Shown: piece by piece, positions 24,576 through 27,018 of the stretch
Position numbering within the stretch: the stretch's first letter is position 1
Layout of the letters: each line of letters begins with the position of its first letter
NCBI GenBank assembly: GCA_017646765.1
Contig: JAGCMD010000030.1
Location: 1-32,740, forward strand
Reading direction: 5' to 3'
Source of the DNA: Elusimicrobiaceae bacterium
GTDB taxonomy: Bacteria > Elusimicrobiota > Elusimicrobia > Elusimicrobiales > Elusimicrobiaceae
Length of the DNA stretch: 32,740 bases
The notes under the pieces: generated by a model
What the model saw: the letters and a program-made list of their open reading frames with translations, nothing else
Databases searched by the model: none
Told to the model about the DNA's origin: nothing
Translations under genes and position numbers: made by a program

Positions 24576-24691
24576 AACCTCGCTAAAACAAATTTGTACT
24601 TAAGGTTGAAAGCCAAAAGGACACTTATATTTTAGTATTTTTGGAAGTAGTTTCGCAGGGAAGATGACAGCACTTTTCCGGCAAGGCCAAA

Positions 24692-24697
24692 TATGAT
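24692..24697 (+). promoter_or_regulatory. Probable -10 of the structured RNA
   Basis: TATGAT, with a start expected near 24704. It is the last clear -10 before the folded region. The -35 is uncertain. The rest of 24576-24691 shows no gene. Confidence 0.45.
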
Positions 24698-24703
24698 AGC
24701 ATA

Positions 24704-24982
24704 AAAAGGTAGAAAAATTGGATGTGCGGGAGTTGCTTGGTAGTACCCTAAGCCAACACAATCGGCTTAGTAAAATTTAGGACTGTTTTTGGAGGGCATA
24801 AGCCCACTTTTTTGTGAAAGCAAAAAGGCTTCTGAACCAAAGATAGTCGCCCTATTGCCGATAGAAACGGACTAATTACCCGGACTTATCGGCAGGTAAT
24901 CCTGTATTTGATTTGAAATCATGCAGGTAGGCGGCTGTTTATTTGAGAGTTCAGAAGCCCTCAAATAGCAGCCGCCTTTTTT
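24704..24982 (+). ncRNA. Candidate structured RNA of unknown class (about 280 nt)
   Basis: No protein frame of interest occurs, yet the sequence folds throughout. In order: hairpin CTAAGCC/GGCTTAG (24748-24770); a 12-bp helix 24781-24792 with 24837-24848 (two G-U pairs) enclosing two hairpins, GGGC-ATAA-GCCC (24794-24805) and an 8-bp stem at 24807-24828; an H-type pseudoknot with stem TGCCGATA/TATCGGCA (24856-24863, 24887-24894) whose loop ATTACC (24875-24880) pairs with adjacent GGTAAT (24895-24900); hairpin CCTG/CAGG (24901-24927); and a long terminator. The free strand CTTCTGAA (24829-24836) is complementary to the terminator loop. It lacks signature sequences of RNase P RNA, tmRNA, SRP RNA or 6S RNA. 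It may act in trans or as a leader of the gene at 25014. Confidence 0.68.
24930..24982 (+). terminator. Two-part stem terminator of the structured RNA
   Basis: GGCGGCTG (24930-24937) pairs with CAGCCGCC (24969-24976), and TATTTGAG (24940-24947) with CTCAAATA (24960-24967), followed by six T. The 12-nt apical loop contains GTTCAGAAGCC (24949-24959), the exact complement of 24827-24837. Confidence 0.9.
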
Positions 24983-25013
24983 GTTGGGAAAATTAAATAA
25001 GGAGGAGAGAATT

Positions 25014-25727
25014 ATGGAACAAAATCAAATAACAGAACAGGAAATCGTGCGTGTATTAGAAGTTGTAAAGAAAATAGGATATATAAATTGGGCCGTTTGT
25101 AATAAAGAGTTATCTTCTCCTCATAAAGCTACAGTCATATTACGCGTACTTCAAAAGAGGGGCGTTATTCAAGAAGATGAAAATGGAGAATGGGCGGTAA
25201 ATACAAGTCATACAATCTTAGGAACTAGTTCTATGGGAGTGACAGCCGATGTAGATGAAATGAATTTAAATAAGGAAAAGATAAAAAGGGGAAATAACAA
25301 TCAACAGCCTGAATGGATAACAATATGTACTTGGATAGTTGGACTTGTTCTTTGTTGCGTATACGGAGTTGTATTTTTTAGTGATTTTTCAGATAAAAGT
25401 ATTAATGTTTTTCAACGTCTTATGTTCACATTGGGGTGTAGTGTAATAGGTGCTGGAGCGGTAAATTTGATACTTTCAATATTTTATTATTCTGTCGTAG
25501 GAATTGCAAAAAGCACCGCAGCATTAACTAATAAGGGCTCACAAATATTGAGTAATATGTCAATAGCGATTACAAAACGAATCGCAAAGGCTGTGGTAAA
25601 TGTGAAAAAGGATATTATGTTAGAAGAAGAAAAAAACTTACGTAAACGCGTTAATGATTTGGAGTTACAACTGTTAAAACAGCGTATACAAGCGTTGGAG
25701 AATACCCTCACACAACAAAAGAAATAA
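25014..25727 (+). CDS. Membrane protein with winged-helix-like N terminus and coiled-coil C terminus (unknown function)
   Basis: 237 residues from the ATG at 25014, chosen because AAGGAGGAGAG lies just upstream. Residues 5-62 look like a winged helix (helices around VLEVVKKI and KATVILRVLQKRG, wing near EDENGEW), loosely like the FtsK gamma domain. Two membrane helices follow (about 101-122 and 137-163), then a long amphipathic helix and a charged coiled coil (about 200-236). Composition is more AT-rich than the neighbours, hinting at acquisition. Only 31 nt separate the RNA terminator from the start codon, so expression probably requires read-through of that terminator. I do not recognise a family. 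Confidence 0.75.
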   Translation: MEQNQITEQEIVRVLEVVKKIGYINWAVCNKELSSPHKATVILRVLQKRGVIQEDENGEWAVNTSHTILGTSSMGVTADVDEMNLNKEKIKRGNNNQQPEWITICTWIVGLVLCCVYGVVFFSDFSDKSINVFQRLMFTLGCSVIGAGAVNLILSIFYYSVVGIAKSTAALTNKGSQILSNMSIAITKRIAKAVVNVKKDIMLEEEKNLRKRVNDLELQLLKQRIQALENTLTQQKK

Positions 25728-25843
25728 AAAATTTAAACTGCGAATTACGGCCTAGTATCTAAACATACAAATGTTAAGTCTTAATTATTATTAAAGAGAT
25801 TGGTGGCAAATTTAAATAACTTAAAATATAAGGAGAAAAAGGA

Positions 25844-25969
25844 ATGTTTATACTGATATTTTGTTTGTTGTTAGGGTGGTTTATTTTTACAGCCCATAAA
25901 GCGTACGGCAATGTAAAATTATTAGCGTCATATCAAAAACAAGCACGGATGATGACGAGTATTTTATAA
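25844..25969 (+). CDS. 41-residue membrane peptide
   Basis: An AAGGAG site and a short hydrophobic protein: one membrane helix (about 2-17), then a basic tail with KLLASYQKQAR. The stop lies 4 nt before the next start codon, implying an operon with the lipoprotein. The function is unknown. The 116 nt before it show no other gene. Confidence 0.6.
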   Translation: MFILIFCLLLGWFIFTAHKAYGNVKLLASYQKQARMMTSIL

Positions 25970-25973
25970 AATC

Positions 25974-26576
25974 ATGAAAAAGTTTATTATTGTAGGTTAT
26001 ATTGCTTTGGTAGGGTTGGGTTGTAAAACAGTGCCCTTGCAATCCAATTATTCAAATCTCCCCAGAAATGTATTGGAAGAAAAGACTCGTGCGGGAGATT
26101 TGCAAGCCGCCTTTTGGTTGGGGGATATGTATCTTTTAGGCAAAGGCGGCCCACAAGACACCCAAAAGGCATGGGCGGAGTGGAAAACGGCAAGACTGGC
26201 TTTTGAAAAAGAACCGGCCCTTATTTCGCAAACCTGGTTCAAAAAAGCATATCAAAATAATCATCCGCTGGCCATTGTATTAGAACTAATTGCTTTCGGC
26301 ACAAACCCTGCAAAAATCAAAGAACCCAATGAACACTTCCTACAATCGCTTGGGAAAATCATAGATAAATTTTTATTATCGCAAGAGCAATATCCCCAAT
26401 ACAACGAGTTTTTGACACAGGAGCAAGAACTGTCAACTTTTTGGGGAGAAATAGCTTATACCATAGGGCAAAGATATTATGCCACAGAACAAATGCAAAA
26501 CGCGTATCTGTGGGCAGACCGAGCTTGTAAATTAAAGAATAAAGATGGTTGTATTTTAGCTATGAAAACTTTTTAG
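25974..26576 (+). CDS. Lipoprotein with a Sel1-like repeat
   Basis: 200 residues. The signal peptide ends in the lipobox LGLGC with Cys17 as lipidation site. Residues about 41-71 (LQAAFWLGDMYLLGKGGPQDTQKAWAEW split over two helices) match one Sel1-type helix pair, and the C-terminal AYLWADRACKL resembles a second. Such repeats mediate protein contacts in the envelope. It is followed with no real gap by a secreted nuclease gene. Confidence 0.72.
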   Translation: MKKFIIVGYIALVGLGCKTVPLQSNYSNLPRNVLEEKTRAGDLQAAFWLGDMYLLGKGGPQDTQKAWAEWKTARLAFEKEPALISQTWFKKAYQNNHPLAIVLELIAFGTNPAKIKEPNEHFLQSLGKIIDKFLLSQEQYPQYNEFLTQEQELSTFWGEIAYTIGQRYYATEQMQNAYLWADRACKLKNKDGCILAMKTF

Positions 26577-26577
26577 G

Positions 26578-27018
26578 ATGAAGAAAATATTTTGTATTTT
26601 GGGCATAGGGTTTATTTCGCCAATAGTATTTGCACAGACGGAAATTTTAAGCCAAAACTTTAACAAAGTGTCACTGGCGTCTGTATACGACGGCGACACA
26701 TTCCGCGTGCATTTGTCGTGTAAGTACGGCGTATTTTGCAAAACGATTCCTATCCGTGTGCGTGGCGTGGATTGCCCGGAAATCAAAGGCGGTTCGGCAG
26801 AAACTAAAGCCCTAGCCAAACAAGCCAAAGCATTTACAAAAAACTTCCTCAAAAGCGGTAAGATTTTGTTGCGTAATTGCGGGCGTGATAAATACTTCCG
26901 GCTACTCTGTGATGTAAAGGTAAATGGACAAAGTCTAGGCGAAGAACTTATCAAAGCCGGACACGCTATCCCCTATGATGGCGGCACGAAAACACCGTTT
27001 CCACCTAAATTCCGCTAA
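26578..27018 (+). CDS. Secreted staphylococcal-nuclease-like (thermonuclease) protein
   Basis: 146 residues with a signal peptide (cleavage near VFA-QT, residue 19). Catalytic and calcium residues of the SNase fold are visible: D38 and D40 in YDGDTF, R60 and E68 in PIRVRGVDCPE, and R108 in DKYFR. It should cut DNA or RNA outside the cytoplasm. Extra cysteines (48, 54, 66, 101, 111) may form disulfides. It starts one base after the lipoprotein stop, so coupling is likely, and it overlaps the convergent HD-GYP gene by 4 bases. Confidence 0.87.
   Translation: MKKIFCILGIGFISPIVFAQTEILSQNFNKVSLASVYDGDTFRVHLSCKYGVFCKTIPIRVRGVDCPEIKGGSAETKALAKQAKAFTKNFLKSGKILLRNCGRDKYFRLLCDVKVNGQSLGEELIKAGHAIPYDGGTKTPFPPKFR

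What the first reader, a model, noticed from the sequence alone, without database searches (positions are those of the whole stretch)
24704..24982. Candidate new structured RNA with a pseudoknot and a loop-strand tertiary pairing
Seen: every part of this 280-nt stretch folds. A 12-bp helix closes a multiloop with two hairpins. A compact H-type pseudoknot follows (8-bp and 6-bp stems). The terminator loop GTTCAGAAGCC is the exact complement of GGCTTCTGAAC, whose middle CTTCTGAA is the only unpaired strand of the multiloop. That precise match between two exposed segments is hard to explain by chance. No signature of RNase P, tmRNA, SRP or 6S RNA was found.
Basis: partly seen in the sequence, partly recalled or inferred. 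Interest (0 to 1): 0.78.

Follow-up and report, generated by a model that had tools for sequence, protein, structure and literature searches.

The report
New multi-copy RNA transcription switch
In front of a gene in a gut bacterium of the phylum Elusimicrobiota sits a previously uncatalogued folded RNA, repeated up to about 25 times per genome ahead of pilus, sugar-coat and other accessory genes, that looks like an on/off switch deciding whether RNA polymerase stops before the gene or reads through.

Summary
The conserved element is 24783-24982. It matches no Rfam family. I recovered 171 distinct copies, confined in every collection searched to Elusimicrobiota: 62 of 66 genomes of the window's genus, 18 of 18 of a sister genus, and scattered genomes of a distant family. 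Up to about 25 copies occur per genome. Helices P1, P4, P5 and P6 are supported by covariation. The match between terminator loop and multiloop strand (J) occurs in 103 of 105 copies, about 10 contiguous pairs with freely varying sequence, and 0 of 10,000 permutations approach it.

The "tertiary pairing" is better read as the distal half of a long antiterminator: J plus the 3' strand of P1 pairs with the 5' arm and loop of P6. P6 is a terminator about 30 nt before an ORF start. Nascent-chain folding gives P1 first, then the antiterminator (102 of 103 copies), then P1 plus terminator (about 91%).

Best explanation: a cis-acting transcription attenuator, riboswitch-like, of an undescribed RNA class. 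It controls accessory genes, about half of them type IV pilin-like. The signal is unknown; the exchangeable P4 loop is the best candidate input. Termination has not been shown experimentally.

The parts
24748..24770 (+). 5' leader hairpin CTAAGCC...GGCTTAG upstream of P1; similar GC-rich hairpins precede many copies, others have a promoter -10 box there
   Evidence: sequence; copies listed
24783..24792 (+). P1 5' strand CTGTTTTTGG (the window's helix extends to 24781)
24794..24805 (+). P2 hairpin GGGC/GCCC inside the P1 multiloop
   Evidence: variable in sequence across copies
24807..24828 (+). P3 hairpin inside the P1 multiloop
24827..24837 (+). J strand GGCTTCTGAAC, exact complement of the P6 loop; sequence differs from copy to copy but complementarity is kept
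24837..24849 (+). P1 3' strand CCAAAGATAG plus conserved TCG; alternatively pairs with the P6 5' arm (antiterminator)
24857..24893 (+). P4 hairpin; apical CGG/CCG closes the 9-nt loop ACTAATTAC (24871-24879), which comes in discrete exchangeable types
24901..24927 (+). P5 hairpin CCTG...CAGG
24930..24976 (+). P6 hairpin, predicted intrinsic terminator; loop 24949-24959 GTTCAGAAGCC pairs with J
24977..24982 (+). T6 run after P6
   Evidence: sequence; T run of at least 5 next to P6 in 140 of 171 copies
25000..25007 (+). Shine-Dalgarno-like AGGAGGAG
   Evidence: sequence
25014..25727 (+). first regulated ORF, 237 aa, no Pfam match
25974..27018 (+). further genes of the putative operon: Sel1-like protein (25974-26576) and SNase-domain protein (26578-27018)
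24644..27010 (.). approximate accessory islet (leader RNA plus operon) between mnmA and the HD-GYP gene; most relatives have the two genes adjacent without it

Best explanation
It is the 5' leader of an mRNA and works as a transcription attenuator. Co-transcriptionally P1 forms first. When the 5' arm and loop of P6 emerge, they pair with J plus the 3' strand of P1 and unzip P1; this long antiterminator (about 20-25 bp, enclosing P4 and P5) lets RNA polymerase pass. If P1 is held closed, or if the P6 3' arm wins the strand exchange, P6 forms as a terminator before the T run and the downstream gene stays off. Because J and loop are matched in each copy by a private sequence of about 10 nt, the exchange is specific in cis. 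A signal is presumably read by the constant part (P1-P3 junction) and/or the exchangeable P4 loop. Shown here: conservation, covariation, alternative pairings, thermodynamic ordering, position ahead of genes. Inferred: that P6 terminates in vivo, the direction of control, and that a signal exists.
For: All four helices covary: 615 cells changed on both sides against 144 in shuffles, 96.2% of cells paired, slid controls at most 48%. J-loop pairing is universal and sequence-free: all four pair types at each of 9 positions, 88 distinct 8-mers in 103 copies. The window copy folds to P1 at 24929, to a single long J+P1-3'/P6 helix at 24961, and back to P1 plus terminator at 24982. The same three stages appear over 103 copies: P1 0.99 before P6; antiterminator favoured by a mean 13.6 kcal/mol at the loop, over 50% in 102 of 103; P1 plus P6 over 50% in 91% at full length. 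The bases just after P1 (TCG, CCG or CTG) are unpaired in the P1 state yet vary in ways that mostly keep pairing with the P6 5' arm CGGCTG/CGACTG. A T run of at least 5 follows P6 in 140 of 171 copies, and an ORF start follows at a median 45 nt, with an SD-like site in 145 of 160. -10-like boxes lie just upstream in many copies.
Against: No transcript, termination or probing data. Folding energies ignore kinetics, RNA polymerase and pseudoknots. With J scrambled, the antiterminator arm alone still beats P1 in about 84% of copies, so J is not strictly required for the switch in this model. The two arms themselves are too conserved to covary much. No ligand or factor is identified, and a constitutive attenuator is not excluded.
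Confidence: 0.76

Rival explanations
1. One reading: J and the P6 loop form a stable tertiary (pseudoknot or loop-strand) contact in the finished RNA, clamping P1 and P6 together. The switch, if any, is secondary.
For: The complementarity is exact and the two segments are both exposed in the P1 plus P6 fold. J-loop pairing is topologically compatible with that state and could persist through the strand exchange.
Against: It does not explain why the complement continues through the P1 3' strand and its 3' extension into the P6 5' arm, nor why nearly every copy folds through an antiterminator stage.
Confidence: 0.25
2. A free-standing sRNA: the RNA ends at the P6 terminator and acts in trans through J, the P6 loop or the P4 loop.
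For: It is self-contained with its own terminator and often a promoter-like box just upstream. P4 loops are shared between copies as discrete types.
Against: Copies lie at a tight distance ahead of same-strand ORFs with SD sites, which an sRNA gene does not need. J and loop match each other, not a constant target.
Confidence: 0.12
3. A metabolite riboswitch for a surface-lifestyle second messenger such as c-di-GMP, with P1-P3 (or P4) as aptamer.
For: Riboswitch-like layout. Targets are mostly envelope and pilus genes. GGDEF proteins are present in all 21 genomes tested and an HD-GYP gene is next door.
Against: GGDEF genes are equally present in relatives without the element. The P4 loop varies as types within one genome and one copy lacks P4, unlike an aptamer core. 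No Rfam riboswitch matches.
Confidence: 0.1
4. The element is a recombination or cassette-integration site that acts as folded single-stranded DNA, and its RNA form is incidental.
For: Element plus gene occur as lineage-specific islets at the same spot in at least three genomes with different genes and orientations.
Against: T run, SD and promoter features, G-U tolerance in the helices, and no integrase or repeated boundary found.
Confidence: 0.04

Closest known systems
yxjA purine riboswitch of Bacillus subtilis (PMC9756952)
   Same: An off-type transcriptional layout: P1 forms first, a nascent central helix (antiterminator) invades P1, and the terminator then invades that helix.
   Different: No purine aptamer match here. 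The invading helix is extended by a copy-specific 10-bp J/loop pairing, there are extra hairpins P4 and P5, and the element is multi-copy ahead of accessory genes.
Classical terminator/antiterminator attenuators and T-box leaders (from general knowledge)
   Same: Mutually exclusive terminator and antiterminator in a 5' leader.
   Different: No Rfam T-box match, and no conserved leader ORF was seen. The P4 loop is exchangeable in types.
c-di-GMP riboswitches (Rfam RF01051, RF01786)
   Same: Known elsewhere to control surface and pilus genes (from general knowledge).
   Different: No Rfam match in the element. RF01051 was not found in 66 genus genomes, although its control genomes were silent too.
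Retroviral dimerisation-initiation kissing loops (from general knowledge; RNA dimer review PMC7357161 surfaced)
   Same: A 9-nt hairpin loop holding a palindrome (TAATTA, TTATAA; 4-mers in other types).
   Different: A/U-rich, bacterial, some loop types not palindromic; dimerisation untested. A resemblance only.

Membership tests
transcription attenuator (cis-acting leader) | intrinsic-terminator-like hairpin plus T run upstream of an ORF on the same strand | tested here: met
   P6 plus T run of at least 5 in 140 of 171; ORF called downstream in 160 of 171, start at median 45 nt
transcription attenuator (cis-acting leader) | conserved antiterminator mutually exclusive with the terminator | tested here: met
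   (computed; not chemically probed)
transcription attenuator (cis-acting leader) | regulated termination in vivo or in vitro | not testable with these tools
   no expression data available
riboswitch | conserved aptamer that binds a small ligand and changes expression | not testable with these tools
   conserved core exists, but the P4 loop is exchangeable; no ligand assay
any Rfam 15 family (RNase P, tmRNA, SRP, 6S, T-box, known riboswitches, HEARO and others) | covariance-model match at or above gathering score | tested here: not met
   no match over the element or eight other own-genome copies; best sub-threshold hit 18 bits against a cut-off of 55
H-type pseudoknot RNA (reader) | second stem between the P4 loop and the P4-P5 linker conserved or covarying | tested here: not met
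   6 bp in 2 of 95 copies; partner unchanged when the loop changes
phage- or plasmid-borne RNA element | homologues in phage, plasmid or viral collections | tested here: not met
   no match at the sensitivities used

The most novel reading that the evidence does not exclude
A modular RNA switch family: a constant strand-exchange platform with a private, freely drifting 10-nt cis address, carrying an exchangeable P4 recognition loop (at least eight types, several in one genome, mostly with self-complementary cores) that is read by a trans partner (another RNA, a homodimer, or a protein). Accessory genes could then be placed under different signals by swapping one hairpin tip.
Probability: 0.25. 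Interest if true: 0.85.

Novelty: new variant of a known kind. Interest (0 to 1): 0.68.

Why it matters
It adds an undescribed, abundant cis-regulatory RNA class in a phylum with almost no described RNA regulation, and it controls variable surface and DNA-modification genes of gut and rumen bacteria. The per-copy private J/loop code is an unusually clean natural example of sequence-independent strand exchange. Hundreds of natural variants make the roles of invading strand, terminator and sensor loop directly testable in vitro. If the P4 loop is the input, it is a natural swappable-sensor design.

Tried and rejected
Known RNA family: Rfam at gathering and permissive thresholds, nothing.

Intramolecular partner for the P4 loop: complementarity to the rest of its own element is not above permuted loops (4.85 against 4.94).

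P4-loop palindromes as proof of dimerisation: 15 of 17 distinct tips hold a 4-nt or longer palindrome against 39% expected by shuffling, but the tips are related and the test was post hoc, so this is kept only as a lead.

A second competitor, downstream TCCAAAAACAG pairing with P1-5': present in about 20% of copies, but own copies do not clearly exceed other copies; kept as noticed.

J as an obligatory toehold: scrambling J leaves the antiterminator arm dominant in most copies, so only a stabilising and specificity role is claimed.

c-di-GMP: GGDEF is present everywhere and not discriminating; the c-di-GMP-I search had no positive control.

Element as a pilin-only regulator: in the window's own genome only 1 of 63 pilin-motif hits was seen behind an element copy, while about half of the targets over all genomes are pilin-like.

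Literature: no paper describing this RNA was found in the open-access library; a key survey (Weinberg 2017) is not held.

Full report
What is there. The conserved element is 24783-24982 on the + strand. P1 (CTGTTTTTGG, 24783-24792, with CCAAAGATAG, 24837-24846) closes a multiloop with hairpins P2 and P3 and one free strand, J (24827-24837, partly inside P3 in the minimum-energy fold). P4 (24857-24893) follows with a 9-nt apical loop ACTAATTAC, then P5 (24901-24927), then P6 (24930-24976) with a T6 run. An SD-like AGGAGGAG and an ATG at 25014 follow about 30 nt after the T run. The ORF (237 aa, no Pfam match) heads a putative operon with a Sel1-like and an SNase-domain gene. The fold is much better than shuffles (z -6.6 and -7.5). 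No Rfam family matches.

Homologues. blastn and a core pattern found the element many times in the genus. A covariance model built from 60 copies matched 98 of 341 Elusimicrobiota genomes: 62 of 66 of the window's genus g1, 18 of 18 of sister genus g5, 1 of g2, 16 of a distant family f21, and one weak match in f25. Only a few candidates per genome were scored in that search; the weak single matches in G308 and G327 did not hold at E 1e-4 on re-search. The window's genome holds nine confident copies; two f21 genomes hold 22 and 25 matches. A stricter sequence pattern over 84,980 bacterial and archaeal species returned 78 stretches; all but three carry Elusimicrobiota names and those three are labelled uncultured bacterium. 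No match was found in viral contigs, phages or plasmids. In total 171 distinct copies were compared.

Structure test. On 105 copies, 96.2% of cells in the 41 model pairs are standard pairs. 31 pairs have two-sided changes, and 615 cells are changed on both sides against 144 in shuffles. Sliding the partner drops pairing to at most 48%. The alignment was fitted to the model, which favours it. An independent RNAalifold run on the MAFFT alignment of 60 copies gave 25 of 41 pairs with compensatory change.

The loop-strand match. In 103 of 105 copies J and the P6 loop share at least 7 contiguous Watson-Crick pairs (mean 9.98). J of one copy with the loop of another gives 4.2, and 10,000 permutations never exceed 4.76. 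All four pair types occur at every one of nine positions, and 88 different 8-mers are seen in 103 copies.

The P4 loop is near-invariant within its main type, while its supposed partner is not. Six pairs are possible in 2 of 95 copies. Copies with loop CTTATAACC retain the old GTAAT. It is rejected.

What the match is for. J is continuous with the 3' strand of P1, and the P6 loop is continuous with the 5' arm of P6. The whole J+P1-3'+TCG stretch is complementary to the whole P6-5'+loop stretch. For the window copy, the minimum-energy fold ending at 24929 has P1; ending at 24961 it is one long helix that replaces P1; ending at 24982 it returns to P1 plus the P6 terminator. Over 103 copies the same order holds: P1 probability 0.99; then J-loop pairing above 0.5 in 102 of 103 with a mean advantage of 13.6 kcal/mol; then P1 and P6 both above 0.5 in 91%. 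Scrambling J weakens but usually does not abolish the antiterminator, so the J/loop code adds stability and cis specificity rather than being strictly required in this model. The logic is that reported for the yxjA riboswitch, where a nascent central helix invades P1 and the terminator then invades the central helix (PMC9756952).

Targets. Of 160 copies with an ORF called downstream, the start lies at a median 45 nt after the element and 145 have an SD-like site. Of 144 target proteins scanned, 73 carry the type IV pilin N-methylation motif. Others are glycosyltransferases (about 13), polysaccharide pyruvyl transferases, outer-membrane barrels, DNA methyltransferases of R-M type and lipoproteins. 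The window's genome has 63 pilin-motif hits, one of them seen behind a copy. So this is an accessory-gene leader, not simply a pilin leader. In Endomicrobium, pilin and competence genes have been discussed as a route for gene uptake (PMC8809381); no link to this RNA is shown.

Islet. In most relatives mnmA and the HD-GYP gene are direct neighbours, with 84-256 bp between them in those inspected. In the window the leader plus three genes lie between them. Of the 30 loci examined, G032 has an element with a related Sel1-like gene there, and G020 has an element with a pilin gene there in the opposite orientation. Leader and gene thus come and go together.

Exchangeable P4 tip. The 9-10-nt loop comes in discrete types: ACTAATTAC and close variants (most copies), CCTTATAAC, GCTGATCCC, AAGTCATGAG, GCTCATTAC, GCTCGCTAC, GCCAGCTAC, GGTAGCTCC, CACTGCAAA, and a GCTATGTTG type. 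Several occur in one genome, and one copy in the window's genome lacks P4 altogether. Most types have a self-complementary centre, a post hoc lead only. I regard the tip as the likeliest input site, by inference.

Limits. Everything is computed. Termination, the direction of control and the signal are inferred. Taxon names of the G-handles are not given; the identity of the phylum rests on record titles.

Noticed in passing
L312, L313, L317, L319, L329, L325, L072:412-624, L300, L298, L306-L310, L314, L265, L249 (P4 loop); window 24871-24879: The P4 apical loop exists as discrete exchangeable types, mostly with palindromic centres (AATT, TATA, GATC, CATG, AGCT, TGCA); several types coexist in one genome.
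   Followed up: partly
L315:2422-2578 (window's genome, contig C83): A copy that lacks P4 entirely but keeps P1-P3, P5, P6 and a 9-bp J/loop match, ahead of a pilin gene.
   Followed up: no
L362, L366, L369, L371-L380, L384-L387 (pilin genes of the window's genome): Many other pilin genes have near-identical promoters TTGACTTA followed by a poly(T) tract of variable length between the -35 and -10 regions. This looks like slipped-strand phase variation of a large pilin repertoire.
   Followed up: no
L086, L100, L121, L241, L103 and others, just after the T run: In about a fifth of copies a second P1-3'-like stretch (TTCCAAAAACAG) and an anti-SD stretch (TTCTCC facing GGAGAA) follow the terminator, suggesting an extra translational layer. 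Not significant against other copies.
   Followed up: partly
window 24644-27010; L334; L348: Leader RNA plus different accessory genes inserted at one spot between mnmA and the HD-GYP gene in three genomes, absent in most relatives; no repeats or integrase seen.
   Followed up: partly
many copies, 30-60 nt upstream of P1: An AGGAG stretch followed by a GC-rich hairpin (TAAGCC...GGCTT) and TTACAATTT precedes copies that lack a close promoter; no leader ORF is evident.
   Followed up: no
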